A stretch of DNA of 64,000 nucleotides from Pseudomonas vranovensis DSM 16006. GTDB lineage: Bacteria; Pseudomonadota; Gammaproteobacteria; Pseudomonadales; Pseudomonadaceae. Location: positions 682,001-746,000 of the forward strand of contig NZ_AUED01000001.1 in NCBI RefSeq assembly GCF_000425805.1, given 5' to 3'. Within the stretch, counting starts at the first letter, position 1. Each line of letters opens with the position of its first letter. Both the position numbers and the translations under genes were made by a program. Below the pieces are notes generated by a model. That model was not told where the DNA came from, did not search any database, and saw only the letters and a list, made by a program, of their open reading frames with translations. This document shows, one piece after another, positions 24,608-44,236 of this stretch.

Positions 24608-25626
24608 GAACGTACCTTGATCCTGACAATGCCTTCGCATTGCCCTTGAATGATTTCAATGAAGCTGGTCCACCCCAGGTGAGTGCCGTGGTTGCGACTC
24701 AGGCAAAAGGCAGGCACTTCATCGTCCTTGAGCACCAATTCGAGGTCATATGCCAAGCCGTCGCGCAGGAGAAAGTCGATGAGCGCGCGTATCCGTTCGA
24801 AGTGCTCGCCACTGGGCAGGAATTCACGCAAGCGCACCTGGGTAAGCTGGGAAATGACAAGGGTAAATTTGCTGCTGCGCGTGCGCGTTCGCGTGCCGAC
24901 AGTAAAGTCGTTGCCCAGGTGGCCGTTCTGCCGGCCCAGGCTGAGCATCTGTCGGGGATCAAGCCGGAGCGAACGCGCTTCGAATTCACGAATCTGTACG
25001 CAGGGCAAATCAAAGCAATGGGCGATGATCCCTGCGACCGTGCCGGGGGCGCGGCTACGGCTGGCAATGACGCCGGCAAAACTGAGCAGTCGGCCCCAGG
25101 GCAGGGCGGTGTTGCCACGCAATTGCCCGTCGTTCAAGCCTATGAGGGCGAATACATAGCGGGAAAAGTCATCGTTGGCTTGCGCCTGAAAGCGGATGTA
25201 ATAGCGGTACTTGCGCCAGCTGCGATGCAAGAGGCTGAGCAGGTAATGGTTGAAAAAGTCCAGAAAGGCAGGGCGAATACCGATGCCCTGAGTTTGCTCA
25301 TAGGCAACCTGGTCGAGATAGAAGCCGGGCAAGGGTGAATCGGTACCGTGCAGGCCGAAGAAGGTAGCGCAGACGTTGTAGCGCTGACCGTCCGACGTCT
25401 GCATCATACGTTCGGCCTTGCGGATGTCGGAAGCGGGGAACGACAGGCACGCATCGCTTCGTAGCCACACGCGCTGACGTGCTGAGGCAATCGGGCGCTG
25501 TGGCTCCAGGTCATCGCCATGCAGCCCGTGCAGCCGCTCCAGTAATTGGAAGAAGTTGTGCTGGTGGGCCTCGGCGAGCAACGTGTTGGCTAGATCAGTG
25601 GTTGTCTGCCGGTCAGCAAAGGCCAT
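24604..25626 (-). CDS. tssG: T6SS baseplate protein TssG
   Basis: A 340-residue protein. The start at 25626 (MAFADRQTTTDLANTLLAEAHQ) leads into the typical 'HNFFQLLERL' opening, and 'GLHGTDSPLPGFYLD' is the family core motif. It forms the baseplate wedge with TssE and TssF. The start lies inside the end of tssF (37-base overlap). The longer open frame upstream is tssF read in another frame. Confidence 0.93.
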   Translation of the reverse strand: MAFADRQTTTDLANTLLAEAHQHNFFQLLERLHGLHGDDLEPQRPIASARQRVWLRSDACLSFPASDIRKAERMMQTSDGQRYNVCATFFGLHGTDSPLPGFYLDQVAYEQTQGIGIRPAFLDFFNHYLLSLLHRSWRKYRYYIRFQAQANDDFSRYVFALIGLNDGQLRGNTALPWGRLLSFAGVIASRSRAPGTVAGIIAHCFDLPCVQIREFEARSLRLDPRQMLSLGRQNGHLGNDFTVGTRTRTRSSKFTLVISQLTQVRLREFLPSGEHFERIRALIDFLLRDGLAYDLELVLKDDEVPAFCLSRNHGTHLGWTSFIEIIQGQCEGIVRIKVRS

Positions 25627-27356
25627 GTGTAGTGCTCGTTGTTGGTTGTGTTGATCACTTCCAGTTGATGGAAGGAATTGACGCTGGCGTACAGTGCGAA
25701 GAAATGCGAAAGGACTGTGCCGAACAGGTACAGGTCGCCTTCGCACAAGAAAGCGTCCTGGTCGAGCTCCAACCGGGTTTGCAGGCCGCGTATGGGCAAG
25801 CCCTTGATCAACCAGTCCAGGGGGGCGGTGCGGGCTTGGCCAATACCGTTGAGGCGCTTGCGGGTGGCGCGGGCCTGCTGGATGTCATGCAAGGCCGCGA
25901 AGTCATAGGCACTGATCACAGCTTTGAGCGGCTCGGCCGAGAGCAGTGACAGGTAGTTGAGCGACAGGTTGGAGATCAACGTCCATTGCAGTTGACCGTC
26001 GAGTACCGGGCGGTAGGGGCGGGTTGGACGAGTGATGTTGCGGTAACTGGCCAGGGGAGGAGTCGCCTCGGTGGCGAGGCTGATGTCGCCCACGCCGAGT
26101 GCCAGCGGCAGGTTGCGGTTGGTACACGTCAGGTCTACCGAGGCGGTTTCCAAGTCTCCGATGTAGGCACTCTCGTCGCCGCGCACGAAAGCGATTCGGT
26201 GTTCCAGCCCGTCACCCCGTAGCGATTCTTCGACTTTGCAGCGGTAATACAATGCCGTTCGGCCCCGGGCGACTTCAATCTCGTGGGCGAATGACTCGAA
26301 GGGCTGGAAGATTCGCAGCCGTTCGCTGCTATTGCCATCCGTCGCCACGCGCCAGCTTGCCACCTGGTCGACGCTGAAGATCTCGTAGGCATCCGGGCGC
26401 TGGCCGCTGGGCGTGAGGCGTATCTGGTCGGCGTGGCCAGCAAGGTCAATGGGTTCGGCGCTGTGTTCGAACAGGTTGATTGCCGGTGCGCAAAACAAGC
26501 TGAAGTCACCATTACCAACACGCAGGGTCGCGGGCAGGGGGCGGCTGAAGTGAAATTCCAGGCAGATCTTGCGGCTGTCCTGATCGGGCCATAGGCGGCT
26601 CAACTGCGTCAGGGTGAAAAAGTGAAAGCGCTGCGGGAAGACAAAATATTCCTGCAGTATCCGATAGCCGTCAAAAACGTTGCGAGGGTAGGGCAGTAGT
26701 GCTTCTTCGGGGGTGAATCCGGGAAACGCCAGCGAGCTTGCCGGCAGTTGTCGACGTTCCCCGTTGACTGTGATGCTGACAGCGCTCAGGTAGTGCGAAA
26801 GCCACAGATAAAGGCTCTGTGCGTTTCGGTCATCACCGCTGAGGTGGAAGTCAAGGCGATCACAGCCCAAGGTGTTCAAGGGCCTGTTCACCAGGGTGTC
26901 CAGGTCGATACACACGGTGGAGCGTTCGCGCGTATGCGTGGCGTCGACATTGGCAATGGCAAGGGGATAGATATTGACCTCTGTGCAGGTTCGATACTCA
27001 CAGGCCACGCCTTCGACAGGGTGTGCGAACAGTCGAGCGCCCTTGGGAATGCATTGTTGCTCGCTGATCGATTGCTCCACAGGGGTGAACTGAACGATCG
27101 TCGCGCTGGGCAGGGGGCGCAAGTAGTTGGGCCAGAGCATTTGCAACAGTGAATGGGTGAGCTCTGGCAGGTCATCCTCGAGTTTCAGGCGTAACTTGGC
27201 AGTCAGAAATGCAAAGCCTTCCAACAGTCGTTCGACGTCCGGGTCCCCGCCTTGTTCACCCAGGAAACGGCTCAGTTGCGGGTTGTCCTGGGCAAACTCG
27301 GCACCCAACTCTCGCAGGTAGCTCAACTCTTCGCCAAAGCGGTCTTTGAGGGTCAT
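25590..27356 (-). CDS. tssF: T6SS baseplate protein TssF
   Basis: A 588-residue protein with the classic TssF N-terminus 'FGEELSYLRELGAEFAQDNPQL', then 'DPDVERLLEGFAFLTAKLRLKLEDDLPELTHSLLQMLWPNYLRPLPS' region. It forms the TssF2G wedge of the baseplate. It is three bases downstream of tssE, and its 3' end overlaps tssG. Confidence 0.96.
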   Translation of the reverse strand: MTLKDRFGEELSYLRELGAEFAQDNPQLSRFLGEQGGDPDVERLLEGFAFLTAKLRLKLEDDLPELTHSLLQMLWPNYLRPLPSATIVQFTPVEQSISEQQCIPKGARLFAHPVEGVACEYRTCTEVNIYPLAIANVDATHTRERSTVCIDLDTLVNRPLNTLGCDRLDFHLSGDDRNAQSLYLWLSHYLSAVSITVNGERRQLPASSLAFPGFTPEEALLPYPRNVFDGYRILQEYFVFPQRFHFFTLTQLSRLWPDQDSRKICLEFHFSRPLPATLRVGNGDFSLFCAPAINLFEHSAEPIDLAGHADQIRLTPSGQRPDAYEIFSVDQVASWRVATDGNSSERLRIFQPFESFAHEIEVARGRTALYYRCKVEESLRGDGLEHRIAFVRGDESAYIGDLETASVDLTCTNRNLPLALGVGDISLATEATPPLASYRNITRPTRPYRPVLDGQLQWTLISNLSLNYLSLLSAEPLKAVISAYDFAALHDIQQARATRKRLNGIGQARTAPLDWLIKGLPIRGLQTRLELDQDAFLCEGDLYLFGTVLSHFFALYASVNSFHQLEVINTTNNEHYTWPLLTGRQPLI

Positions 27357-27359
27357 GGC

Positions 27360-27770
27360 TTACCTCACTTTGGTGTAGCGGTTATGGCCATTGACCAGTA
27401 GCTCGATTTGCAACTGCTGTTGCTGGTTGCGTACCTGCAGTTGGCATTCGAGTCGAAAGTCCAACTGCAGGGGGACCTCGGGATCAGGCTGACACCGTAT
27501 TGCGCATACCTTGATGCGCGGCTCGTACAAATGGATGGTGCGACGAATGTCGGCAGCGATCTGTTTCAATACGTCACCGCGGCTTAGTGCATGGTCGTTG
27601 AAGTCGCGCAAGCCCAGTGCTGGACTACTTTGCGAGCTGCCTTGACGGCTGTTCAGCAGGCGCTCCAGGTGCTGTTTGATCGCCTCGAACTTCTCTGCGA
27701 CGTATTCCTGGCAATGCGACGGGCGCCGCGCAGGTGTATCGGATTTCAGGCGCTCAAACAGGCTGCTCAT
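27360..27770 (-). CDS. tssE: T6SS baseplate protein TssE (gp25-like)
   Basis: A 136-residue protein: MSSLFERLKSD, then the gp25-like domain with 'GLRDFNDHALSRGDVLKQIAADIRRTIHLYEPRIKV', and a C-terminal beta-strand region. It nucleates sheath assembly at the baseplate. The start at 27770 overlaps the tssC stop as ATGA. Confidence 0.94.
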   Translation of the reverse strand: MSSLFERLKSDTPARRPSHCQEYVAEKFEAIKQHLERLLNSRQGSSQSSPALGLRDFNDHALSRGDVLKQIAADIRRTIHLYEPRIKVCAIRCQPDPEVPLQLDFRLECQLQVRNQQQQLQIELLVNGHNRYTKVR

Positions 27771-29245
27771 TGGGTGTCGAGCCGCCCTACCAGGGAAATC
27801 TCGAAGTTGGCGCCCATGTATTTGAAGTGAGGGCGTACCGCGAGCGAAACCTGGTACCAACCTGGATCGCCGGCAACATCGGTCACTTCAATTCGGGCCG
27901 CGCGTAATGGACGGCGACTGCGGACATCGGCAGAAGGGTTTTCCTGATCGGCTACATACTGTTTGATCCAGCGGCTGAGTTCGCTTTGCAGGTCCTGGCG
28001 TTCCTTCCAGCTACCGATCTGCTCGCGCTGCAGAACCTTGATGTAGTGGGCCAGGCGGTTGACGATGAACAGGTAAGGTAACTGAGTACCCAATTTGTAG
28101 TTGGTCTGTGCTTCCTGGCCTTCGGGCGTTCTGGGGAACACCTTGGGTCGCTGCGCCGAGTTGGCCGAGAAGAACGCGGCATTGTCGCTGTCCTTGCGCA
28201 TGGTCAGGGCGATGAAACCTTCCTCGGCCAGTTCAAATTCCTTGCGGTCCGATATCAACACCTCAGTGGGGATTTTTGCCTGTAACCGGCCAAGGGACTC
28301 ATACAGATGAACCGGCAGATCGTCCACCGCACCGCCGGACTGCGGGCCGATGATATTTGGGCACCAGCGGTAACGGGCAAAGCTTTCGTTGATGCAACTG
28401 GCCAGCAGGAACGCGGCATTGCCCCACAAGTAGTTACTGTGCTCGCCGTCAATGTTTTCGTCATAGCTGAAGCTGGTTATGGGGTGTTCGTTACGCTCGT
28501 AAGGCTGGCGCAGCATGAAGCGTGGCAATGCCAATCCGACGTTGCGTGAATCCTCGGCATCGCGAAAGGAGCGCCATTTGGCGAAGCGGGGCCCCTCAAA
28601 GATGTCCTTCACCTCTTTCAGATTAGGCAGGTCTTCAAAGCTGTTCAGGTTGAAAAAATCAGGCCCGGGGGCTGTGATGAATGGTGCATGTGACATGGCG
28701 GCCACGGAGGCGACATAACTAAGCAGCTTTATGTCACTGGAAGACGGGCCAAATGAGTAATTGCCGATCATGGCGGCAACCGGTTCACCGCCGAATTGTC
28801 CAAAGCCAGCGGTGTAGACATGTTTGTAAAGACCGCTGCTGGTAATGTCGCCGGCATTATCGAAGTCTTCCAGCAAGTCATTCTTGCTGATGTGCAACAC
28901 CTCGAGTTTTATGTTCTCGCGAAAGTCGGTTCGGTCCACTAACAGCTTCAGGCCGCGCCAGGCTGATTCCAGTTGCTGGTATTCGGGTTGATGCAAGATG
29001 ATGTCCATTTGCCGCCCGAGTGCGCGGTCCAGTTCGGCAATCATTAGATCGACACGATGCTTGTTGATGAGTTGGTCGCGCTCGTTGCTTTTCAGTATTT
29101 CCGTAATAAATGCTGCAACCCCTTGCTTGGCGATCAGGTAACCTTCCTGGGTTGGCTGCAACATGGTTTCGGCCATGATTTGATCAAGCAGACAGGGGTC
29201 ACCCACTGTTGTTGGTGACGTGTTCGGGGTGGTCCTAGTTGGCAT
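27767..29245 (-). CDS. tssC: T6SS sheath large subunit TssC (VipB)
   Basis: A 492-residue contractile sheath subunit. Family segments: 'LDQIMAETMLQPTQEGYL', 'QMDIILHQPEYQQLESAWRGLKLLVDRTDF', 'GEPVAAMIGNYSFGPSSSDIKLL', and the C-terminal 'VSLAVRPHFKYMGANFEISLVGRLD'. It pairs with TssB. There are 55 bases between it and tssB. Confidence 0.97.
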   Translation of the reverse strand: MPTRTTPNTSPTTVGDPCLLDQIMAETMLQPTQEGYLIAKQGVAAFITEILKSNERDQLINKHRVDLMIAELDRALGRQMDIILHQPEYQQLESAWRGLKLLVDRTDFRENIKLEVLHISKNDLLEDFDNAGDITSSGLYKHVYTAGFGQFGGEPVAAMIGNYSFGPSSSDIKLLSYVASVAAMSHAPFITAPGPDFFNLNSFEDLPNLKEVKDIFEGPRFAKWRSFRDAEDSRNVGLALPRFMLRQPYERNEHPITSFSYDENIDGEHSNYLWGNAAFLLASCINESFARYRWCPNIIGPQSGGAVDDLPVHLYESLGRLQAKIPTEVLISDRKEFELAEEGFIALTMRKDSDNAAFFSANSAQRPKVFPRTPEGQEAQTNYKLGTQLPYLFIVNRLAHYIKVLQREQIGSWKERQDLQSELSRWIKQYVADQENPSADVRSRRPLRAARIEVTDVAGDPGWYQVSLAVRPHFKYMGANFEISLVGRLDTQ

Positions 29246-29300
29246 CGTGTCGCTCCGTTGTCGATTTCAAGACCGGCAGGGCCGGACTCAAGGCGGGCTG

Positions 29301-29804
29301 TCAATCTTCGTTGGGGGCTTCCAGAACAAGCTCCAGCTCCTGGGCCAGTTGGTTGCGCGACTGCTCATCGCTCAGCAGGTACTGCAACTGTTTTCGGAAG
29401 GCCGGAACGTTACCCAGCGGGCCCTTGAGGGCCACCAGTGCTTCACGCAGTTCAAGTAGTTTGTTCAGCTCCGGGACCTGGCGGGCAATTGCATCCGGCC
29501 CGAAGTCGTTGATCGATCGAAACTGCAGGCGCACCTGCATCTCTGCATCTGGTGCCTGACTCAGCGCCAAGGGCACGTTCATGTCCAAACGAACGTCAGC
29601 ATCGTCGAGCACGTTGTTGAAGTTGTGTTTGTCCACGCGCATGACTTGTCGGTCTTCGAGGGCACGATCATCAATCAGGCCAAAGTCACCCGTTATCAGC
29701 ATCTTGTGCGGCAGTTCGACTTCCGCTTGTTGATCGCCCGTGGCAGGGACATATTTTATGTTTATACGTTCTTTGGGGGCGACAGAGCTTGATGGCTTGG
29801 CCAT
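29301..29804 (-). CDS. tssB: T6SS sheath small subunit TssB (VipA)
   Basis: A 167-residue protein: MAKPSSSVAPKERINIKYVP, 'AEVELPHKMLITGDF', then the helical region with 'LQFRSINDFGPDAIARQVPELNKLLELREALVALKGPLGN' near the C-terminus. It forms the contractile sheath with TssC. First gene of the minus-strand T6SS operon; GGAG lies 11 bases upstream of the ATG. Confidence 0.97.
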   Translation of the reverse strand: MAKPSSSVAPKERINIKYVPATGDQQAEVELPHKMLITGDFGLIDDRALEDRQVMRVDKHNFNNVLDDADVRLDMNVPLALSQAPDAEMQVRLQFRSINDFGPDAIARQVPELNKLLELREALVALKGPLGNVPAFRKQLQYLLSDEQSRNQLAQELELVLEAPNED

Positions 29805-30085
29805 GCGTTGAGAACTCCATTAAGTCAATTCAGGTTGTAGGAAGTTTCTTTTTCTAATATCAGGTGCTGGCAATTAAATGGTTTGCGAACTGTTTGTAGG
29901 AAAATTCTGGTGGCTGTAAGTAGGTGCTTGCTGTTTTTTAAGACGATGCATGGGGTGAGGTGTTTGCGTCGAGTCGCAAGGTGTTACTTCATGTTTATTT
30001 GTTTTTATCCAAGTTAATACCCTAAGCTCCCGTCCGATTCGCTGGTGAGGTATTTCCGTGCAAGTGTGCAGACGGAGGTAGGTCA
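29805..30085. promoter_or_regulatory. Divergent T6SS promoter region
   Basis: A 281-base AT-rich gap between tssB and vasI that must hold both operon promoters. No sigma-54 -24/-12 pair with correct spacing was found: TGGCA and TTTGC near 29868-29888 are 4 bases too far apart. GGAGG at 30074-30078 is the vasI ribosome site. No gene-like ORF on either strand is convincing. Confidence 0.5.
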
Positions 30086-30772
30086 TTGGTACGTATGATT
30101 TCAACGACAGGGTTGGCGCTGATGGATCGTTATGTTGGTTGGACGCTGGGGAGTTACTTGTTGTTCTGTGTGGGACAAGTTCAGGCAAGTGGCCCGCGTG
30201 ACTGCACCGGTATTGTCTCCAACGTCGAGCGTCTTGCATGTTTTGATGAGGCGGCGGGAACACCGGTAGTGGTACCCCGGTTACCCGTCAGGCAAATACC
30301 GGAACCTGCAGCCCCGACCCGGACCCTGATCATGTCCAATGAGGTGCAGCGAGCGCCTGGCCAATCGGGTTTCGTCATGAGCAGCGAGAATGAAAGCGTC
30401 GACGGCAAGCAGCAACGGGTATTGATTTCGGCACCGGCTTCTGCACATCCCCACACCTATTTGGCAATCAGCTGTGTGCAGAACATTACCCGTCTGCAGT
30501 TGCTCACTGCACAGCCTGTGGAAACCAGTCGCGTCAGCATTGGCTTGGGGCCCAACCTCGGCGCTGCAAGCAAGCGGCCTTGGCAGGTGATGGAAGATGG
30601 CACGGTGATTGACGTCGGTCGCGGTCGAACCGCAATCGAGATGGTGAAGGGCGTGCTCGATTGGCAATACATTCACATCAGCAGCGACAATGCGCTGCTC
30701 AATGGCCTGGTGTTCGATAGCAACACCCTGGCGCCCATGATCAACCAGGCGCGTACAGCATGTCATTGGTAG
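30086..30772 (+). CDS. T6SS-associated protein VasI (TagO-like)
   Basis: A 228-residue exported protein. It probably starts at TTG 30086, because GGAGG is 7 bases upstream; ATG 30095 is the alternative with poor spacing. A signal-like segment (WTLGSYLLFCVGQVQA) precedes 'DCTGIVSNVERLACFDEAAG', the small Cys-containing motif of the VasI/VCA0118 (PF11319) family. The C-terminal beta-rich domain begins 'HTYLAISCVQNITRLQL'. The exact role in secretion is not settled. First gene of the plus-strand T6SS operon, overlapping tssA by 13 bases. Confidence 0.85.
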   Translation: MVRMISTTGLALMDRYVGWTLGSYLLFCVGQVQASGPRDCTGIVSNVERLACFDEAAGTPVVVPRLPVRQIPEPAAPTRTLIMSNEVQRAPGQSGFVMSSENESVDGKQQRVLISAPASAHPHTYLAISCVQNITRLQLLTAQPVETSRVSIGLGPNLGAASKRPWQVMEDGTVIDVGRGRTAIEMVKGVLDWQYIHISSDNALLNGLVFDSNTLAPMINQARTACHW

Positions 30773-32199
30773 TCGAAGCACCTGCTCAGGTGGCAGCGTT
30801 ACTCTTGGCTCCGATCGATTCGAAGACGCCCGCCGGGTTGTTCGACATTGAAGACGAAACCTATCAAGCAATCGACCAGGAGATGGTCAAGCTGGGCGGG
30901 TTGCAGGAAGCCAACATCGACTGGCAGTACATAGAGGAAGCTTCACAGCAGTACCTGAGTAGCCGATGCAAGCAATTCCGCATTCTTGTCCATCTGGGCA
31001 CCGCCTGGTTGCGCCGTCGCTGCTGGGAACGCTGGTGTACCGTGGTGAACGTGCTGGCCGGTATGGTCGAGACCTATTGGGAAAGTGCCTATCCTAAACC
31101 GGGGCCGACGGGATACCTGACCAAGCGCAAACTCGTCGAAGGACTGCTCAAACGCCTGGCAACTACGCTGCCGACACTGGAGCGGGCGAGCTTCGTGCCC
31201 GCTCACGGCGCCTTGGCGCAAGAATCACTTGCACGGTTGATGAAGTGTTCAGGTAGCGCGCAGTTGGACCAGGCAGCGTTGCTGGAGCTGCAGCGATTGC
31301 TCGAGGAGCAGGCGACCGCAGCCCGCGACGGCCCGTCAAAGCAGTCATTGGCAATTGTTCCCTCGAGTAGCGACGACTCTCTTGGCCGGACGCTACTGTC
31401 TGCTCAGAACGGTATTTCGCTGGGCAATGATCGCGAAACTCGACACGCCGTGTTGACCATGGCCGAGTTCATCAATCAGCAGGACATCTATGACCCAACG
31501 GGTTACCAACTGCGCCGCTTTGGGCTGTGGGCACATGTTCATGCGTTGCCTCCTGTCAGAAAAGAACTGCGTACGGAGCTGATGGCCGTCCCGGTTGAAA
31601 TCGTGAGTCGATACCAGGATGCCTTGTCCGGCACGGTGGTCGAGCCTGAGCTGCTGCTCAGGGTGGAGCGCAGTGTAGTCGCCTCGCCATTCTGGGCGCG
31701 AGGGAGCTTCATGGCCGCTAGCATTGCCAACCGACTGGCCATGGGCGAAGTGGCTGAAGCTATTCGCCAGGCAACCGAGCGCTTTGTCAGGCGCTTGCCA
31801 GCCATGCAGCAGCTTTGCTTCAGCGACGGCACAGCCTTTGTCGATGAGCAATGCATGGCCTGGCTGAAAGGCAGCGGGACAGCGCAAGGGGCGGACTCGC
31901 ACTGCCATGAATTTCAACGTTTGCGAGAAGAACTTGTTGCCCAGCTCGAGCAGGAAGGGGTCGAGCACGTGCTACTGCGCCTGCAGGCATTGCAGGGCGA
32001 CTACCGTTCGCCGCGTGAGCGCTGCCATGCCACGTTGATTGCCGCTGACTTGCTGGCTTCGCGTGGGTTGTCATGGCTGGCAGGTGACCTGTGTGCAGGC
32101 GTCGCGCGCACCATGCAAGAAACCATGGCCACGCAGTGGGAACCCGACGTTTATCAGAAACTCAAGCAGTGTGGCGGCTCGTCACGGCTGAACGATTAG
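30760..32199 (+). CDS. tssA: T6SS protein TssA (ImpA_N, VasJ type)
   Basis: A 479-residue cap/baseplate-assembly protein. The N-terminal ImpA_N domain is visible as 'YQAIDQEMVKLGGLQEANIDWQYIEEASQQYLSSRCKQFRILVHLGTAWLRR' region, followed by a 'WESAYPKPGPTGYLTKRKLVEGLLKRL' block; the long C-terminal half is helical and ends with 'QWEPDVYQKLKQCGG'. TssA classes differ in the C-terminus; this looks like the long VasJ-type form found next to vasI and tssM. Confidence 0.92.
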   Translation: MSLVVEAPAQVAALLLAPIDSKTPAGLFDIEDETYQAIDQEMVKLGGLQEANIDWQYIEEASQQYLSSRCKQFRILVHLGTAWLRRRCWERWCTVVNVLAGMVETYWESAYPKPGPTGYLTKRKLVEGLLKRLATTLPTLERASFVPAHGALAQESLARLMKCSGSAQLDQAALLELQRLLEEQATAARDGPSKQSLAIVPSSSDDSLGRTLLSAQNGISLGNDRETRHAVLTMAEFINQQDIYDPTGYQLRRFGLWAHVHALPPVRKELRTELMAVPVEIVSRYQDALSGTVVEPELLLRVERSVVASPFWARGSFMAASIANRLAMGEVAEAIRQATERFVRRLPAMQQLCFSDGTAFVDEQCMAWLKGSGTAQGADSHCHEFQRLREELVAQLEQEGVEHVLLRLQALQGDYRSPRERCHATLIAADLLASRGLSWLAGDLCAGVARTMQETMATQWEPDVYQKLKQCGGSSRLND

Positions 32200-32224
32200 A
32201 CCAACAGGGCGTTAGGAGTCTGCG

Positions 32225-35200
32225 ATGGGGAAATTCCGGGATTACTTCAAGCGTTGGGGGTTGTCAGCATTGCGTCGGGTCACCGGGGTCTTGCCACTGA
32301 TGTGGGTATTTGGGACAGTGCTGTTGTTGGTGGGTATCTGGTGGCTAGGGCCGCAATGGACCTGGCGTGAGCAGCAACCCTTGGCCAGTATGGCGCACCG
32401 TAGTATCGTCAGCCTTCTTGCCGTGCTGCTGCCCTTGCTGTTCTGGGCCTTGTTGTTGCGGTCGCGCTTTCGGCGCCTGCAAGGTGAGCGTCGACATGAA
32501 GCGTCGGTAGTCGCCGACCCCTGCTTGCCTTATGTGCAAGCCCAGGAGGGCGCGCTGAATCGAAGCCTTGCCAATTTTCTCGACAATGCAGGGGGGCGTC
32601 GAGCGCTTTATCAGTTGCCGTGGTACCTGGTATTGGGTGAGGAGAACGCAGGCAAGTCGAGTTTTATAACGCGTTCCGACCAAAGCTTTGCATTGACCCG
32701 CGTGAGCAAGGCCCAGGCCCGCAGCCGTGCAGATGGTGAGCTGGCGTATCCCGTGGATTGGTGGATTGGCAACGATGCGGTAATTATCGACCCGCCGGGC
32801 GAGCTTGTTGCACAGGCTGCGACCGAGGGTAATGCGCAAAGCGCAAAAGCCAAGACACGTCCATTGCTACCGCCCGGTACGCAAGCCAGGCTCTGGAGCC
32901 ATTTGCTGGAGTGGCTGGCGCGTAACCGAAGTCGCCGCGCCCTCAACGGAATTGTCCTGGTTATTGACCTGTCCGCTTTATTGCAGTCCTCGCCGACACA
33001 ACGAATCGAGCTGGCGCATGTGCTGCGCGCTCGCCTGTATGAGCTCAGCAGTCAGTTGGGGTCGCGGCTGCCGCTCTATGTGGTGTTGAGCAAGTTCGAT
33101 CTGATCGAGGGCTTTGACGCGCTATTTGCCAGGTTACCCGTTTCGGTTCGTGAGCAGATGCTTGGATTTACCTTCAAGCTGGACGCGGTTACCTCGTTTG
33201 ACGCCTGGCTGGAAGAATGCGCAGCTCACTATGATCACTTGCTCGAGGTGCTTGAAGAGCACGTACTGGATTGCATGGGGGCGATCACTTCGACTGATCA
33301 GCGCCAGCGGCTCCTTTCATTGCAAGCCCAACTGATCGGTCTGCGTCCTGCGTTGTTGCGCTTCTTGACCGAGGCGCTGGGCAGCGACCGTTTCACGACC
33401 CCTGCGCTGGTACGTGGCCTGTACTTTTCTTCGGTGTGCCAGCAGGGCGAAATCAACAATGCCTTTGTACGGGCTGCCGCCCAACCCTACAAGCTGGCGG
33501 TGCCTCTGAGTGATACAAGGCCGCAGGTGGCGCCGCAGGTCTACTTTGCTCAGCAGGTGTTCCGGAAGGTCATCTACCCGGAGGCGGGGCTGGCGGGTGA
33601 CAACGTCAAGGTGGCACGCAGCAAGCGGCGCTTGTTGTGGGTCAGCTCGGGGCTAGGGGTGCTGGCCGTCGCCATCGGTGTGGCGACCTGGCAACGCAAT
33701 TTCGATGGCAACCGCGACAAGGCCATGAGTGTGCTGGCCAAGAGTCAGGAGTTCAGCGGTCGCGACATCGACACCCGAATCGACCCGACCGCGCGCAACT
33801 TGTTGGCCCCGCTGGACCAAATTCGTGATGCCGTCTCGGTGTATGGGGACTATCGCTCGGCTTGGCCGTTGGTGGCAGACGCGGGTCTTTACCAGGGCAA
33901 GTCTATTGGGCCAACCGTGGACCAGGCTTACTTGACCTTGTTGTCGCGGCGGTTTCTACCGGCGCTAGCCAGTGGGGTTGTCGACGCCATGAACGCAGCC
34001 CCTGAGGGCAGTGAAGCGCAAATGGCAGCCTTGCGTGTGTATCGGATGATCGAAGATAAGAACAATCGCCGCCCGCACATGGTCGAGGAGTGGATGGCGC
34101 GTCAATGGCAGGCCGCATTCCCGGGCCAAGGCCAGGTGCAGCGCGACCTGATGCGTCATCTGCAGTATGCGCTGACTTATGCAGAAGCCGATTTGCCACA
34201 GTTTCGCCAGCAAGTTGCACAGGTGCAGCACGTGTTACGCAAGGTGCCCTTGCCACAGCGCATCTACATGACACTGAAACAGCAGGCCCAAGAGCAGCTG
34301 CACAGTGGGCTGGATTTACGCAATGAGGTCGGCCCGGCCTTCAATGTGGTGTATCAGCCTTTGGCCAGCCCCCGTGACGAACCGACTTCGGACGCCATGT
34401 TGTTGGCACCGCTACTGACGGCCAAGGGATACAAGGATTACTTCGAACCCAATAGTCAGGGCATCACAGACTTGGCGATGGTCGATCAATGGGCGCTGGG
34501 CGAGCGCGACCGGCTGGACTATTCGGCGGTTGACCAGCAGGCGCTTACCGAGCGTATCCGCGCGCTTTACTATGCCGATTACGTTGACAGCTGGCGTCGG
34601 GCCTTGAACCAGTTGGCCGTGACTGATTTTGAAGACCTGGCCCATGGTGTGTCAGTGCTGGAGCACTTGACCGGGCCTTCGGCGCCCCTGCGCCGGCTAC
34701 TGGAGGTTGTACGCGACAACACCGTCATCAATCTGCAGCTGCCGGTTGTCGAGGGGCAAGCAGCCAAGGCACTTGAGGTAGCCAGTCTCGATGTTGCCCA
34801 CCCGCATCAAGCCATGGGGATCCGCAGGGCATTTTCCGGATTGGCCGAGTTGTTGGCGGCCAAGGGAGACAAACCGACCAACTACGATGAAACACTTAAT
34901 GCCGTCATGGCGGTCTATGACTATGCCAAGGCGGTACAGGATAGCCCTGATCGTGGCAAGGCCGCACTCAGCACGGTACTCAACCGCTTCTCCATGACTG
35001 CTCCCGACCCGATCAGCACATTGCAGCGTGTAGCAACCGGCTTGCCTGAGCCGATAAACCAGCACATCCGGAAAGTCGCGGATCAGACCGCCCAAGTATT
35101 GGTGGAGGAAGCACTGCGTGAGCTGGAGAAACGTTGGGAGTCGGAAGTCTACAGCTTCTTCCAGCAGCGCTTGGCCGGGCGCTATCCGTTTGTTGCCAGC

Positions 35201-35866
35201 GGGCCGGATGCAGCGCTGGACGACTTTGAAGCGTTTTTCGGACCCAGAGGCCGTTTGCAGCAGTTCCAGGATCAGTACTTGAAGGTATTTCTAAAGGACA
35301 ATCTGGACGCCTTGTACTCCCACAGCCGTAACGGCTACCTGGTTCGCACCGACGTCATTGAGCAGTTGGAGCTTGCTGATCGCATTCGCGAGACGTTTTT
35401 CGATCATCGGGGAAGCCTGAGTGTGCAGTTCAGCGTCGAACCATTGGGACTGAGCGCAAACCAGCGTACCAGTGTGCTGGACCTCGATGGCCAACTTGTC
35501 TCATACACCCATGGCCCCAGTATTATCACTGGCCTGATCTGGCCCAATACACTCAGTCAGCAGGTGCGCAGTAACCTGACCCTGATCAAGTTGAACGGTA
35601 ATAGCAGCAGTCTGGAGTTTCGTGGTCCCTGGTCGATGTTTCGTCTGCTCGGCCGCGGCAGTCTCAATGGTCGAACTGCAACCAGCGTCGATCTGAGCTT
35701 CAAGACCGGCGATGGCATGATGCGCTATCAATTGAGTTCTGAAAAAGCGTTGAATCCGATCACCCAGCGCCCATTCAAGGGTTTTGTACTGCCACGGACA
35801 CTGCTGCAGAGCTCCCACGGTGCCTTGGCGCAAAACGAGGCACCGTATTTGGGGCGTGCATTGTGA
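32225..35866 (+). CDS. tssM: T6SS membrane complex protein TssM (IcmF)
   Basis: A 1213-residue inner-membrane channel subunit. Two N-terminal TM helices (about 20-42 and 60-78), a cytoplasmic NTPase domain with Walker A 'GEENAGKSS' (about 138), a third TM near residue 475 (WVSSGLGVLAVAIGVATWQ), then a large periplasmic part ending in the TssJ-binding C-terminal domain. AGGAG precedes the ATG. Full length for the family; last gene of the plus-strand operon. Confidence 0.96.
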   Translation: MGKFRDYFKRWGLSALRRVTGVLPLMWVFGTVLLLVGIWWLGPQWTWREQQPLASMAHRSIVSLLAVLLPLLFWALLLRSRFRRLQGERRHEASVVADPCLPYVQAQEGALNRSLANFLDNAGGRRALYQLPWYLVLGEENAGKSSFITRSDQSFALTRVSKAQARSRADGELAYPVDWWIGNDAVIIDPPGELVAQAATEGNAQSAKAKTRPLLPPGTQARLWSHLLEWLARNRSRRALNGIVLVIDLSALLQSSPTQRIELAHVLRARLYELSSQLGSRLPLYVVLSKFDLIEGFDALFARLPVSVREQMLGFTFKLDAVTSFDAWLEECAAHYDHLLEVLEEHVLDCMGAITSTDQRQRLLSLQAQLIGLRPALLRFLTEALGSDRFTTPALVRGLYFSSVCQQGEINNAFVRAAAQPYKLAVPLSDTRPQVAPQVYFAQQVFRKVIYPEAGLAGDNVKVARSKRRLLWVSSGLGVLAVAIGVATWQRNFDGNRDKAMSVLAKSQEFSGRDIDTRIDPTARNLLAPLDQIRDAVSVYGDYRSAWPLVADAGLYQGKSIGPTVDQAYLTLLSRRFLPALASGVVDAMNAAPEGSEAQMAALRVYRMIEDKNNRRPHMVEEWMARQWQAAFPGQGQVQRDLMRHLQYALTYAEADLPQFRQQVAQVQHVLRKVPLPQRIYMTLKQQAQEQLHSGLDLRNEVGPAFNVVYQPLASPRDEPTSDAMLLAPLLTAKGYKDYFEPNSQGITDLAMVDQWALGERDRLDYSAVDQQALTERIRALYYADYVDSWRRALNQLAVTDFEDLAHGVSVLEHLTGPSAPLRRLLEVVRDNTVINLQLPVVEGQAAKALEVASLDVAHPHQAMGIRRAFSGLAELLAAKGDKPTNYDETLNAVMAVYDYAKAVQDSPDRGKAALSTVLNRFSMTAPDPISTLQRVATGLPEPINQHIRKVADQTAQVLVEEALRELEKRWESEVYSFFQQRLAGRYPFVASGPDAALDDFEAFFGPRGRLQQFQDQYLKVFLKDNLDALYSHSRNGYLVRTDVIEQLELADRIRETFFDHRGSLSVQFSVEPLGLSANQRTSVLDLDGQLVSYTHGPSIITGLIWPNTLSQQVRSNLTLIKLNGNSSSLEFRGPWSMFRLLGRGSLNGRTATSVDLSFKTGDGMMRYQLSSEKALNPITQRPFKGFVLPRTLLQSSHGALAQNEAPYLGRAL

Positions 35867-40880: not shown

Positions 40881-41606
40881 TCAATCATGGCAGCAATGGG
40901 AGGTGTCGCTTGCCCCTTCATAGCGGTCGTGATGGCGGACCCAGTCCATGGTGCCTTCCTCGTTGCGGCCCTTGGGCATCAGGTCGAGGAAGTTGTAGGC
41001 GCCCACCAGGATATCCAGGCCACGCGCGTAGCTGGAATAGGTATGGAAAATCGTGCCGTCGGCATCGCGATAGAACACGCTCAGGCCCGGCAGTTCGGTT
41101 TCCTCGCCCGAGTAGGGTTCGTAGTTGTACTGACTGTTGCCGTCGTCGCTGACGCTGACACCGAAGGCCTGGTTGAAGTGGCTGCCATGGGACGAGACCC
41201 AGGGAAACTTCCAGCCCATGCGTTGCTTGAAGCCCTGGAACTCGGCAAAGGGCGCGCGGGATACGGCTACCAGTGACACATCGTGATGAGCGAGGTGCAG
41301 GTTGGCGCCGTCGAAATGATCGGCCAGGAACGAGCAGCCGCCGCAGCCTTCGTCCCAGCCGTCGGCGAACATGAAGTGGTACACCAGCAATTGGCTGCGA
41401 CCGGCGAACAGGTCAGCCAGGCTCATTCGGCCTTGCGGGCCTTCAAAACTGAAGTCCTGATCGACCCGGACCCAGGGCAGGGCGCGGCGGGCCTTGCTCA
41501 ACTCGTCGCGCTGGTGGGTCAGGGCTTTTTCGTGCAGTAGCAGCTGGCGGCGGGCGGCGAGCCACTCGCTACGCGAGACCACCTGGGGGTTGTGGTAGTT
41601 GTCCAT
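40881..41606 (-). CDS. DUF899 thioredoxin-like protein
   Basis: A 241-residue protein starting MDNYHNPQVVSRSEWLAARR, with the family core 'FAGRSQLLVYHFMFADGWDEGCGGCSFLADH' and 'LHLAHHDVSLVAVSRAPFAEFQGFKQRMGWKFPWVSS' region. Fold and CxxC-like Cys cluster (CGGCS) resemble peroxiredoxin/thioredoxin-like proteins; the activity is not established. The C-terminus HCCHD might bind metal. Convergent with the acyltransferase-like gene (7 bases apart). Confidence 0.85.
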   Translation of the reverse strand: MDNYHNPQVVSRSEWLAARRQLLLHEKALTHQRDELSKARRALPWVRVDQDFSFEGPQGRMSLADLFAGRSQLLVYHFMFADGWDEGCGGCSFLADHFDGANLHLAHHDVSLVAVSRAPFAEFQGFKQRMGWKFPWVSSHGSHFNQAFGVSVSDDGNSQYNYEPYSGEETELPGLSVFYRDADGTIFHTYSSYARGLDILVGAYNFLDLMPKGRNEEGTMDWVRHHDRYEGASDTSHCCHD

Positions 41607-41735
41607 GGGTACGCTCCGGTGGGGGAATGTACTGATGGTCGTTTGCGGGAAGGATGAATCGACATCGCGGGATCGGGGACTGATGAACGGTTCCAGAGGA
41701 CACCACGACCTTGCACAGCATCTGTTGGCGAACAT

Positions 41736-42866
41736 TCACAGTCGATAGCCACCCCCGGCAGCCCCTTCGTGCAACGCAGCCTGCAGATGCGCATACAGTG
41801 CATTGGCTTCCTCCGTTGCAATGGACCTGGAGCTATCGCGCAACACTACCCGAAGCAGCACATTCTCCTGGCCCGGCAGCAGCCCCAGGCGTTCGATGGC
41901 CTGGCTGGGAAGCTCATCCACCGACCAGCGTCCCTTGACCTGCATTTCTTCGATCCAGCCGGCCTTGTCCGCGGCTGCGTGCAGCATCTTCTCTGTCAGC
42001 GCTTCTTCTGTCTGGCCGGGTGTGACGGCAAGCGAAATATCCCGTGTGATCGACGGCAAGCGTGAAACCGGTTTCCACGGCAGCAAGTCATGCATCTGCG
42101 CGCGGACCCTTGGATGCTCATCACGCAGCAGGCGAATATCGGGAATGCCCTTGCGAAGCATGGTCAGTCGGTCCAGGCCCATCCCCAGGGCCAGCCCGCC
42201 ATGTGTGCTTGAGTCGATGTTCAGCCGATTGAGGAGTGAGGTGGCAATGCAGCCACACTCAAGGACTTCGACAGGCTGCCCTTGCGTCAGCAGGTTCACC
42301 TCGATCCCTCCGTCGGTGTAGTGATGCGGGCTATCGCTATGGGTCCAGGCCGCATCAGGCACAGCGATCTTCACGATATCCCCGACCATTCGCAGCAGCT
42401 CAGAGCGAGATGACAGGCAAGGATCACCCAAGACCCAGATGTCCATTTGATGAGGTTCGGCACAGTGCCAGCGATCGCGGGTATCACGCCTGAAGGTGAT
42501 GCCCGGGGCGGCGATCATCAGGGTTTCACCCGGCTTCCTGGCCTGTGCCGCGGCCTGCAGTGCCGGTGGGATCTGGCTGGTGGTCTGGGTGCGCAGCAAC
42601 GAGCGGTCGTCGACCCAGCGCGTATGGGCGCTGCCCAAGGTTGTTTCGTCCGGGCTGTACCCCAGCAAGCCGTAGTTGTCTTGCGCGGACACGATGCGCG
42701 GGCCGGTGACCTGCTGTGCTGCTGGCCAACCCAACAACTTCAAGCCGCTGACGATCTCGCTCATCAAGAGGTAAATGGCGTGAGGGGTAGGAGTGGCTTC
42801 TGTCAGGTCGCTTAGTCCGAGCGCTTGATTGAGTTTTTCGTTGGGAATGAAGTTTTTTATAGGCAT
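41736..42866 (-). CDS. Stand-alone PheS-like synthetase with FDX-ACB domain
   Basis: A 376-residue class II aminoacyl-tRNA-synthetase-like protein. The catalytic core (about 25-265) shows 'SLLRTQTTSQ' (PheS: LLRTHTS), motif 2 'ITFRRDTRDRWHCAEPHQMD' (125-142) and motif 3 'GLALGMGLDRLTML' (224-237). Residues about 268-376 form a ferredoxin-fold anticodon-binding domain (PSITRDISLAV ... EEANALYAHLQ), normally found at the end of PheT. This single-chain layout resembles mitochondrial PheRS, not the bacterial two-subunit enzyme. Possible roles: amino-acid activation for a small molecule or peptide, or a resistance copy of PheRS. Divergent from the peptide/M29-like unit; the start region is AT-rich. 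Confidence 0.85.
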   Translation of the reverse strand: MPIKNFIPNEKLNQALGLSDLTEATPTPHAIYLLMSEIVSGLKLLGWPAAQQVTGPRIVSAQDNYGLLGYSPDETTLGSAHTRWVDDRSLLRTQTTSQIPPALQAAAQARKPGETLMIAAPGITFRRDTRDRWHCAEPHQMDIWVLGDPCLSSRSELLRMVGDIVKIAVPDAAWTHSDSPHHYTDGGIEVNLLTQGQPVEVLECGCIATSLLNRLNIDSSTHGGLALGMGLDRLTMLRKGIPDIRLLRDEHPRVRAQMHDLLPWKPVSRLPSITRDISLAVTPGQTEEALTEKMLHAAADKAGWIEEMQVKGRWSVDELPSQAIERLGLLPGQENVLLRVVLRDSSRSIATEEANALYAHLQAALHEGAAGGGYRL

Positions 42867-43034
42867 GTAGAACCTGTGCGAACTTTATTTGAATGGTGAG
42901 TTGTTTGGTTGTTTCGGTTGAACAATCTAGGTCTCCGGATACTGAATGGCAACGGAGGGGCGTAAAAAAGGAAGTTTCGTTCAGAAAGGTACTACATGTT
43001 TTTCGTGGGTGCGCTTAGTCAGCTGGCTGATTCG

Positions 43035-43053
43035 ATTTTGTAAATAACAAAAT
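43035..43053. repeat. Inverted repeat ATTTTGT / ACAAAAT
   Basis: ATTTTGT (43035-43041) and ACAAAAT (43047-43053) flank a 5-base spacer in the AT-rich gap between the PheS-like gene and the peptide ORF. It is operator-sized; it could also be a weak RNA hairpin. A 15-codon ORF with a ribosome-like site (42996-43043) ends in it, but that ORF may be chance. Nothing else gene-like is visible in 42867-43154. Confidence 0.35.
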
Positions 43054-43097
43054 GAAATACATATTGCCTGGGAAGTGCTTGCTTGCCCGTCGGGGTC

Positions 43098-43113
43098 GTA
43101 CTAAATCTAGTAC
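43098..43113. promoter_or_regulatory. 16-bp palindrome upstream of the peptide ORF
   Basis: GTACTA (43098-43103) and TAGTAC (43108-43113) around AATC form a perfect dyad 42 bases upstream of the peptide start. A third half-site GTACTA lies at 42989-42994. TACTAA within it could serve as a -10, so a bound regulator would control the peptide operon. Regulator unknown. Confidence 0.45.
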
Positions 43114-43154
43114 CACCTCTCGCTGTGAGGGGCTTTCAAAGGGAGATCGTAGTT

Positions 43155-43247
43155 ATGCTCAATGTAGGTGGTAAATTGAACCGGCTGGCTTCAGGGCCAG
43201 ATAATTTTGGCTGGGCTCCTCTTGTTTGGGCTCATGCTGAAGACTAA
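43155..43247 (+). CDS. Putative 30-aa peptide (candidate precursor peptide)
   Basis: An ATG at 43155 with AAGGGAGA about 9 bases upstream opens a 30-codon frame ending TAA. The peptide begins MLNVGGKLNRLASG, continues PDNFGWAP and ends LVWAHAED. It has two Trp, one Phe, no Cys, Ser only once and an acidic C-terminus. It matches no peptide family I know. Support for being real: good ribosome site, a defined hairpin right after the stop, and position at the head of the M29-like gene and opposite a PheS-like enzyme. It could be a scaffold or precursor modified by those enzymes, or a leader peptide controlling downstream expression. Confidence 0.55.
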   Translation: MLNVGGKLNRLASGPDNFGWAPLVWAHAED

Positions 43248-43254
43248 AAGCGAG

Positions 43255-43286
43255 TGATGATAAAGAGGGCGACCTCTTTATCATCA
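43255..43286 (+). other. Perfect 14-bp intercistronic hairpin with GCGA loop
   Basis: Arms TGATGATAAAGAGG (43255-43268) and CCTCTTTATCATCA (43273-43286) pair perfectly around a GCGA (GNRA-type) tetraloop. It begins 7 bases after the peptide stop and ends 4 bases before AAGGAGG of the next gene. No U-run follows, so it is not a clean terminator. Such hairpins commonly stabilise the upstream message and lower downstream expression. Confidence 0.85.
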
Positions 43287-43301
43287 ATGCAAGGAGGTCG
43301 A

Positions 43302-44236
43302 ATGTCTTCCGTCAAAGGTATATTTGATTGGGTTGTGAAGGAGGAGGCAGTGATTGTTACTGACTCTGCTGAGTATGTTTCCCATTTGTTGGGGAGAGGT
43401 GTGCATGCCGAGAATATTCACGATATGGAAATTCTGCCGGCAAAAAGTATAGTGCTGTCGTTCTCCAAGGGAGCGTCAAAGCGTGCGTTTGAGATTGCAA
43501 AAATCTCTATCGAAAAGGAATGTATTTTTTGTGCTTTGCACGTATTTGAAAGCTCTCTAAGTCATGCGGATTATGCATTAAGTCTATTGGCTGGTAGTGA
43601 TTTTTATTCTTCACTTGAAAGCCAGAAAAAAATACTGGCTAAGCTTGATGTGGTGGACAGATTTCAAATTTTAGGACGGGGAGCGAAGGGGGAAATAATT
43701 CTTAGGCCTGGCGCTACTCCTTATGCAATGATCTTGGATGACGTCAAAAAAATTATATTCATTCAGTTGCTGAGTTCTTCGAGGTGCATTATGCGCACAT
43801 GAGCCCTCGAGAGCAGTGTCCGTTTAGTTTTACGGGGATGGTGGCTGTATCAGGAGTACTGACAGTCATTAGGAACGAACACTGGGAGAGGGCAGCGGAG
43901 CTGAAGGAAAGTCTTACGCACCTTGCGCAAGAAGTTGTTGAGTATGAGGCGGTTTTAGTAGTGATCAATAATGTAGTTGAATCTTTCTCTGTGGGTGGAA
44001 AGGAATACTCTCCTTTGCTGGCACTTGCTGCGGGCGATCGAGGGTTGGCGCTTACAGAGTTTGCGGTTGGTGTGAATAAAGAAATTTGCGATGTGATCGA
44101 CTACGGCGTCAATTCCCAGATGAATGAAGGTGTTGAAGGTATTCATGTGGCAATTGGCGACGGCTCCACGGGCTTTCACATCGATTTTCTGAGCCCGGCG
44201 GTGAAGGTCATTTTTGGGGGTGGGGAATCTGCTTAG
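43302..44236 (+). pseudogene. M29-metallopeptidase-like gene with internal frameshift
   Basis: Two overlapping frames, 43302-43802 and 43784-44236, look like one 311-residue protein. Shifting by -1 at the A7 tract (43746-43752) joins '..YAMILDDVKK' to 'NYIHSVAEFFEVHYAHMSP' without a stop. The 3' half resembles the end of thermophilic aminopeptidases (M29). Candidate metal ligands in the joined protein are Glu171, Glu253 (LTEFAVGVN), His282 (IHVAIGD) and His293/Asp295 (FHIDF). The Glu253-His282 spacing equals Glu316-His345 of the classic enzymes. Codon use is AT-rich, unlike the flanks. AAGGAGG precedes the ATG. It may be a pseudogene, a programmed or phase-variable frameshift, or an assembly error. 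Confidence 0.6.
43746..43752 (+). other. A7 tract where the M29-like frame breaks
   Basis: The sequence GACGTCAAAAAAATT places AAA AAA in frame, followed by another A. One extra A, or a -1 slip, restores a continuous frame. A hairpin (TCGAGG 43779-43784 with CCTCGA 43805-43810, inner GTGC/GCAC) lies about 27 bases downstream, further than usual for programmed frameshifting. Confidence 0.6.

What the first reader, a model, noticed from the sequence alone, without database searches (positions are those of the whole stretch)
43155..44236. Candidate new peptide system: 30-aa ORF, GNRA hairpin, M29-like enzyme, opposite a PheS-like synthetase
Seen: a 30-codon ORF with a good ribosome site, 7 bases later a perfect 14-bp hairpin with a GCGA loop, 4 bases later AAGGAGG and an M29-metallopeptidase-like gene, all AT-rich in a GC-rich chromosome; a stand-alone PheS/FDX-ACB protein faces it. 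Known: many precursor-peptide operons have a small first gene, a stabilising/attenuating hairpin, then enzyme genes. Inference: the peptide may be a scaffold or precursor to which an activated amino acid is added, with the metallo-enzyme trimming or releasing the product. I know no described pathway with this set. A leader-peptide/attenuator role is the main alternative.
Basis: partly seen in the sequence, partly recalled or inferred. Interest (0 to 1): 0.85.

Follow-up and report, generated by a model that had tools for sequence, protein, structure and literature searches.

The report
Pseudomonas peptide trio with PheRS-like ligase
In Pseudomonas genomes a conserved gene for a 30-33-residue peptide sits between a gene for a crocagin-type peptide-binding protein and a gene for a look-alike of phenylalanyl-tRNA synthetase, a trio that likely makes a small modified peptide; in this genome the binding-protein gene is split between two reading frames.

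Summary
The 30-codon ORF (43155-43247) is a real gene: found in 14 of 298 same-genus genomes, this one included, and 29 named Pseudomonas records. The hairpin recurs in 34 of 34 distinct loci with changed but complementary arms; its GCGA loop does not. The 'M29 metallopeptidase' is a homologue of CgnB, the metal-holding peptide-binding protein of crocagin biosynthesis. Here it is split into two frames near 43745-43754; 11 of 13 relatives' loci have it intact. The 'PheS' is SrmL, NCBIfam's 'PheS-related mystery ligase': mitochondrial-PheRS-like fold, adenylation motifs kept, phenylalanine pocket changed. The peptide was never found without SrmL beside it where sequence sufficed. SrmL stands without the peptide in 16 of 30 genomes, with an open frame in 15. 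Best reading: an undescribed small RiPP-like system in which SrmL acts on the peptide or its product. Self-protection by SrmL is the main rival. No product is known; this genome's copy may be dead.

The parts
41736..42866 (-). SrmL: free-standing PheRS-like protein (class II core plus FDX-ACB-like C-terminal domain), 376 aa, divergent from the peptide
   Evidence: NF051887 437.6 bits, cut-off 300; PF01409 79.8 bits, PF03147 21.6 bits, below its cut-off of 31.1; AF2 model pLDDT 90.2, best PDB fold human mitochondrial PheRS
42867..43154 (.). divergent intergenic region (288 bp, 45% GC) between SrmL and the peptide
   Evidence: composition and comparison with relatives
43155..43247 (+). precursor-type peptide, 30 aa, MLNVGGKLNRLASGPDNFGWAPLVWAHAED
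   Evidence: core pN/pS 0.079 over 34 distinct loci
43255..43286 (+). intercistronic hairpin, 14 bp stem, GCGA loop, no U-tract after it
   Evidence: conserved position with covarying arms in 34 of 34 distinct loci
43291..43297 (+). Shine-Dalgarno-like AAGGAGG of the CgnB-like gene
43302..43802 (+). N-terminal piece of the CgnB-like gene (homology ends near 43754)
43784..44236 (+). C-terminal piece of the CgnB-like gene in another frame; carries five of the six metal-ligand positions; homology in this frame begins near 43745

Best explanation
The 30-codon ORF is a conserved gene for a small precursor-type peptide that is predicted to be bound and processed by the CgnB-like protein encoded just downstream, while the divergently encoded PheRS-like protein SrmL likely adenylates an amino acid other than phenylalanine and joins it to that peptide or its product. 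Shown by the calls: the three genes and their linkage, peptide-level selection on the core, the covarying hairpin, the CgnB relationship with metal ligands kept in relatives, and SrmL's PheRS-like predicted fold with kept motif 2/3 residues and a changed pocket. Inferred: binding, the chemistry, the ligase substrate, and that the hairpin sets the ratio of peptide to CgnB-like protein by guarding the upstream message or damping the downstream one. In this genome the CgnB-like frame is broken, so the pathway is likely inactive here unless the break is an assembly error.
For: Peptide in 14 of 298 same-genus genomes, own included, every one with SrmL beside it. Of 30 pattern hits 29 are Pseudomonas; all 29 have a CgnB-like match just downstream (cut by the locus end in some, truncated in L083), and 27 of 27 with enough sequence have divergent SrmL upstream. 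Core pN/pS 0.079. C-tail of exactly four residues in 34 of 34 distinct loci. CgnB relation: PDB 6zsv E 2.6e-22 and 6zsu 4.9e-11 by profile, TM 0.82 to CgnB by fold, PF26231 precomputed for the 120 of 147 homologues that were listed. Positions matching CgnB's metal ligands are invariant in 30 aligned relatives (ligands from PMC10070186). CgnB binds its precursor CgnA (PMC10070186). SrmL: R126, H139, D142, H181, Y183, T184, G230, R233 invariant in 40 aligned sequences, window's included.
Against: SrmL stands without the peptide in 16 of 30 SrmL genomes, with an open frame in 15, and none of the 16 shows an intact CgnB-like gene; the orphan pairs tested look under purifying selection. So SrmL seems to have a use without the peptide. 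SrmL is divergent, not in the peptide's operon, and is richer in GC than the CgnB-like gene in 12 of 12 loci measured. Two same-class genomes outside the genus carry SrmL with no CgnB-like match in the flank held, up to 1.5 kb. No ligase activity or substrate is known. A net positive leader like CgnA's is seen in only 18 of 34 peptides, and weakly (+1) in the window's. The SrmL of L073 lacks the HxY pocket.
Confidence: 0.4

Rival explanations
1. SrmL is the self-protection gene: peptide plus CgnB-like protein make a toxic compound, and SrmL disarms it or guards its target; strains that lose the producer genes keep SrmL against producing neighbours.
For: Asymmetry: peptide without adjacent SrmL 0 of 14 genomes and 0 of 27 records with enough sequence; SrmL without peptide 17 of 31 loci. 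Losses are repeated: CgnB-like remnants at L046, L066, L072; L057 lacks the segment that its syntenic relative L059 has; full and orphan rows are mixed on the SrmL tree, at least 6 changes forced by starred branches. Of 8 orphan-orphan pairs that I chose, 7 have SrmL dN/dS 0.065-0.213 and 1 is saturated. Broken CgnB-like frames beside peptide and SrmL: window, L061, L052, L096. Divergent orientation.
Against: No toxicity or target is known. SrmL relatives occur in other phyla, so an ancestral function could explain the orphans. The changed pocket argues against a simple resistant spare PheRS. Orphan pairs may have shared a full ancestor for part of their divergence, and the pairs share members. 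In L072 SrmL itself is frameshifted beside the CgnB-like remnant.
Confidence: 0.3
2. Peptide plus CgnB-like protein form a two-gene RiPP unit, and SrmL is an independent neighbour with an unrelated job, kept nearby by shared regulation or shared transfer.
For: SrmL occurs without the peptide in 17 of 31 Pseudomonas loci and has relatives elsewhere; GC differs between the two halves in 12 of 12 loci.
Against: The peptide was not found without SrmL beside it, across differing flanks; no third gene is shared by more than 5 of 14 full loci.
Confidence: 0.17
3. The ORF is only a leader peptide or attenuator for the downstream gene.
For: Short ORF, hairpin, then a gene.
Against: Selection is on amino acids while codons vary (4 to 6 codons at several invariant Gly, Ala, Pro, Leu positions); no U-tract follows the stem in the window; the stem lies after the stop codon in 34 of 34 distinct loci; the downstream protein is of a precursor-binding family.
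Confidence: 0.03

Closest known systems
Crocagin RiPP biosynthesis (CgnA precursor, CgnB/CgnE; Chondromyces crocatus by recall; PMC10070186)
   Same: CgnB-family protein beside a short peptide with aromatic residues near its C terminus; single-copy CgnB-like proteins keep the metal ligands, as here in relatives
   Different: No conserved third gene near it; the peptide ends WA plus four residues instead of Tyr-Trp; SrmL is added; only one CgnB/E copy seen
NCBIfam NF051887 'PheS-related mystery ligase SrmL'
   Same: The window protein scores 437.6 bits against a cut-off of 300
   Different: The family name states no function; whether its authors knew of the peptide and CgnB-like partners could not be seen here
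Mitochondrial PheRS (single-chain, e.g. PDB 3cmq)
   Same: Best fold match over most of the length, catalytic core plus C-terminal domain; motif 2 and 3 residues
   Different: Phenylalanine-pocket FPFT of PheS replaced by HHYT; Glu of HQxE replaced by Asp (against two Pseudomonas PheS)
Peptide aminoacyl-tRNA ligase (PEARL) pathways (PMC11962472, start of abstract seen in the search listing)
   Same: Idea of adding an amino acid to a small ribosomal peptide
   Different: PEARLs are LanB-like (recalled); no such domain here

Membership tests
CgnB/CgnE peptide-binding family (PF26231) | homology to CgnB | tested here: met
   profile E 2.6e-22 to 6zsv; TM 0.82; PF26231 on the 120 listed of 147 homologues. 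Our own Pfam copy gave no PF26231 match for 4 intact relatives
CgnB/CgnE peptide-binding family (PF26231) | CgnB-type dinuclear metal ligands (E161, E252, E274, H280, H291, D293) | tested here: met
   matching positions invariant in 30 relatives (A4; alignment). In the window five of six lie in P0003 and the first lies between the frame break and the listed start of P0003. Metal binding itself not tested
Crocagin-like gene cluster | CgnC-type oxygenase beside CgnB/CgnE | tested here: not met
   no third gene in more than 5 of 14 full loci within about 6.5 kb, ORFs of 80 aa or more; the neighbours were not each scanned by Pfam
Crocagin-like gene cluster | precursor ending in Tyr-Trp | tested here: not met
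   all 34 distinct loci end in WA plus four residues
SrmL (NF051887) | score over the curated cut-off | tested here: met
   437.6 vs 300 bits
Phenylalanine--tRNA ligase | phenylalanine-binding FxF and HQxE residues | tested here: not met
   HHYT for FPFT and HQMD for HQVE; H181, Y183, D142 invariant in 40 aligned sequences. That these are the phenylalanine-binding residues is recalled
Phenylalanine--tRNA ligase | aminoacylation of tRNA-Phe | not testable with these tools
   needs biochemistry
M29 aminopeptidase | match to the M29 family and its fold | tested here: not met
   no M29 match for 4 intact relatives at E up to 1; TM 0.44-0.50 to AmpT/PepS/AmpS against 0.82 to CgnB
PEARL | LanB-like ligase | tested here: not met
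   no such domain in SrmL, the CgnB-like pieces or 4 intact relatives
Attenuator leader peptide | terminator hairpin with U-tract and regulatory codons | tested here: not met
   no U-tract in the window, stem after the stop codon, codons vary under a fixed protein sequence

The most novel reading that the evidence does not exclude
A new RiPP class of only three genes, in which a free-standing mitochondrial-type PheRS paralogue with an altered amino-acid pocket ligates an amino acid, perhaps without tRNA, to a peptide presented by a CgnB-type metalloprotein; strains that stop producing keep the ligase to disarm the compound. This would give SrmL, a ligase of unknown purpose with relatives in several phyla, its first partner and substrate.
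Probability: 0.28. Interest if true: 0.85.

Novelty: new variant of a known kind. Interest (0 to 1): 0.62.

Why it matters
SrmL has a curated family but no stated function, and close relatives carry names from Azotobacter, a leptolyngbyacean cyanobacterium, Melainabacteria, Longimicrobium and Corallococcus (only the Corallococcus one is itself named SrmL there). Here it has a conserved candidate partner: a 30-33 aa peptide with a CgnB-type binding protein. That makes the ligase question directly testable with three small genes. If confirmed, synthetase-like ligases would join crocagin-type peptide presentation as a route to modified peptides. The one-sided loss (producer genes lost, SrmL kept) also offers a test for self-protection.

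Tried and rejected
Leader-peptide/attenuator: rejected on amino-acid-level selection, stem after the stop, no U-tract. M29 peptidase: rejected. Canonical or resistant spare PheRS: disfavoured by the pocket. PEARL: no domain. Rfam: 0 matches in the window at gathering thresholds. Programmed frameshift in the CgnB-like gene: not supported, since 11 of 13 relatives' loci have one uninterrupted frame; L061, L052 and L096 are broken elsewhere in the gene. Wider distribution: SrmL at E<=1e-40 in 3 of 369 genomes of the class sample including the window's own and 1 of 398 of the phylum sample, the window's own; CgnB-like at E<=1e-6 in 1 of 398, the window's own. The two other genomes are the only two held of their family. 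The Burkholderiales MAG hit L095 looks like a chance match: it lies inside a 241-codon frame with no SrmL or CgnB-like match in its 8 kb. Literature: (7 searches of open-licence PMC papers; only the listed top rows were seen, as titles and starts of abstracts) listed no paper on this trio; (GWAPLAWA, 'mystery ligase', PF26231, NF051887) returned 0. Only PMC10070186 was opened: outline with abstract, term passages, and section 9; not its supplements.

Caveats on counts: the 29 named loci were found with a pattern that fixes NFGWAPLxWA, so invariance of those residues there is by construction, and it enters the core pN/pS; in the 14 loci found by whole-peptide similarity it was not forced by that search, although one search also used an NFGWAP anchor. 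could miss diverged peptides. The 14 and the 29 overlap in strains: 43 loci gave 34 distinct. L072 was left out of the tree and dN/dS because its SrmL is frameshifted (30 of 31 loci used). The 15 dN/dS pairs were chosen by hand; 1 was saturated; the 4 full-full pairs gave 0.049-0.121. On the tree the full and orphan labels are no more clustered than shuffled ones (11 changes, shuffled mean 10.3). L075 (a canonical PheS locus) was dropped. Hairpins were picked as the best stem in each locus, which inflates own-arm pairing (own mean 0.944, lowest 0.8; swapped mean 0.403, highest 0.9); one search treats shuffles the same way: 22 of 34 loci had 0 of 100 shuffles reaching the observed score, the other 12 had 1 to 6. 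The first folds used simple base shuffles, z -1.3 to -7.2.

Full report
What is in the sequence. One search shows the features as described: a 30-codon ORF (43155-43247), a perfect 14-bp stem with a GCGA loop (43255-43286), AAGGAGG (43291-43297) and an ATG at 43302; a PheS-like gene faces them on the minus strand (41736-42866). The 43001-44000 bin is the most AT-rich of the window (44.6% GC; next 52.5%). The hairpin is unusual for its composition (z -5.7, 0 of 200 shuffles). The downstream gene is not one frame: P0002 and P0003 lie in different frames, and a profile of relatives switches frame at about 43745-43754.

The peptide is a real gene. The window's 30-aa sequence finds 14 of 298 same-genus genomes at E<=1e-3, its own included. 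A degenerate DNA pattern for NFGWAPLxWA finds 30 stretches in the collection of one genome per species; 29 are in Pseudomonas records (among them P. fragi, P. mandelii, P. thivervalensis, P. psychrophila, P. syringae PA-6-8C, P. viridiflava), and one Burkholderiales MAG hit looks like chance. Over 34 distinct loci the core (columns -5 to +9) changes almost only at synonymous sites (pN/pS 0.079, against 0.46 in the N-terminal part and 0.41 in the tail). The search pattern itself fixes nine of those residues in the 29 named loci, but residues outside the pattern are also fixed or nearly so (Arg at -7 in 34 of 34, Ser at -4 and Pro at -2 in 33 of 34). Every one of the 34 has exactly four residues after the last WA. 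A net positive leader, as in CgnA, is seen in only 18 of 34.

The hairpin is conserved as structure. In all 34 distinct loci a stem with at least 9 pairs lies between the stop codon and the next gene, with different sequences. Own arms pair at 94.4% of up to 10 positions, arms swapped between loci with differing 5' arms at 40.3% (906 swaps). Under a best-stem search, 22 of 34 loci had no dinucleotide shuffle of 100 reaching the observed score, and the other 12 had 1 to 6. Loops vary, so the GNRA loop is not a shared feature. In the window no U-tract follows, so it does not look like an intrinsic terminator; an intercistronic stabiliser or damper of the downstream gene is the inferred role.

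The downstream protein is CgnB-like. The 120 listed of 147 homologues carry PF26231, which UniRef names in some rows give as a crocagin CgnE/B domain. A profile matches PDB 6zsv at 2.6e-22 and 6zsu (CgnE) at 4.9e-11. The AF2 model of an intact relative (pLDDT 92.7) matches CgnB (6zsv) first (TM 0.82), CgnE next (0.80), M29 peptidases and a 2,5-dihydroxypyridine dioxygenase far behind (0.44-0.50). PMC10070186 reports that CgnB holds two zinc ions through E161, E252, E274, H280, H291 and D293, that CgnB binds the precursor CgnA, that no aminopeptidase activity was observed, and that in genomes with a single copy the metal site is intact. The matching positions are invariant in 30 Pseudomonas relatives. 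Its main text does not mention Pseudomonas (0 occurrences) or a tRNA synthetase partner (its one 'tRNA' is in a reference title). Its supplements were not read.

The facing protein is SrmL. It passes NF051887, 'PheS-related mystery ligase SrmL', with 437.6 bits against 300. The AF2 model (pLDDT 90.2) matches human mitochondrial PheRS best (TM up to 0.78). Class II motif residues R126 and G230-LD-R233 and the HQ motif are kept; the carboxylate of HQxE becomes Asp; the FPFT stretch of PheS (recalled as the phenylalanine pocket) becomes HHYT. H181, Y183, T184 and D142 are invariant in 40 aligned sequences, though the orphan SrmL of L073, not among the 40, has lost H and Y. So adenylation is plausible, and phenylalanine is an unlikely substrate. 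Relatives of an SrmL from outside the genus are found in records named Azotobacter, Leptolyngbyaceae, Melainabacteria, Longimicrobium, Corallococcus and Myxococcales; these were not scored against the NF051887 cut-off here.

Linkage and loss. NF051887 exceeds its cut-off in 30 of 298 same-genus genomes, 31 loci. Fourteen loci carry the peptide; 17 loci in 16 genomes do not. In 15 of those 16 genomes SrmL is an open frame; in G269 (L072) it is frameshifted. The 16 genomes hold no intact CgnB-like gene at E<=1e-3; three have remnants, all beside SrmL. L046 has SrmL 98.9% identical to the window's and the same flanks, but the peptide and CgnB-like segment is deleted to a remnant; L057 lacks the segment that syntenic L059 has. 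Full and orphan rows are mixed on the SrmL tree (11 changes by parsimony, 6 forced by starred branches). Of 8 orphan-orphan pairs chosen, 7 have dN/dS 0.065-0.213 and one is saturated; 4 full-full pairs have 0.049-0.121. The reverse case, a peptide without SrmL beside it, was seen in 0 of 14 genomes and 0 of 27 named loci with enough sequence. No other gene is shared by more than 5 of the 14 full loci. The window fits the same path: SrmL and peptide intact, CgnB-like gene broken.

How it most likely works. By analogy with CgnA-CgnB, the CgnB-like protein is predicted to bind the peptide's N-terminal part and act on the Trp-containing core; SrmL likely makes an aminoacyl adenylate and joins it to the peptide or its product. 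The best rival is that SrmL protects against the product; the one-sided retention speaks for it, and SrmL's relatives in other phyla keep the ligase-in-biosynthesis reading open. I cannot separate these with sequence alone.

Known or new. The pieces belong to known families (CgnB/E, SrmL). The trio was not found in seven literature searches, judged from the rows they listed. It fails two crocagin-cluster features (CgnC neighbour, Tyr-Trp end), so I call it a new variant of a known kind (RiPP), not a crocagin cluster.

Noticed in passing
43098-43113: Perfect palindrome GTACTA-AATC-TAGTAC in the divergent intergenic region, a possible operator.
   Followed up: partly
divergent intergenic regions of the 14 full loci: Relatives share short words such as TTTCAGAA, CAAATAAC and TGTATTAAT in the SrmL-peptide intergenic region, possibly promoter parts; the window's own region looks different.
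   Followed up: partly
25590-35866: Type VI secretion genes (TssF, VasJ/ImpA, IcmF) lie upstream; nothing links them to this module.
   Followed up: no
L057, L059, L061 near the 3' ends of SrmL and the CgnB-like gene: Diverged repeats of about 90-100 bp, some inverted, flank the module in these loci, possibly repeats that helped the deletions.
   Followed up: no
L073 and L074: Two orphan SrmL copies (53% identical to the window's) sit in a shared neighbourhood; in the one aligned (L073) the conserved HxY pocket and part of motif 3 are changed, suggesting a further change of function.
   Followed up: no
L096, L061, L052: CgnB-like gene broken or frameshifted while peptide and SrmL are kept, as in the window.
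   Followed up: partly
40881-41735: DUF899 gene directly follows SrmL on the same strand; its cluster is also in L046, but it is not among the genes shared across full loci.
   Followed up: partly
L109 (G381): An SrmL outside the genus, about 39% identical, with no CgnB-like match within 1.5 kb (as L077) and no partner recognised by eye among nearby ORFs of 70 aa or more.
   Followed up: partly
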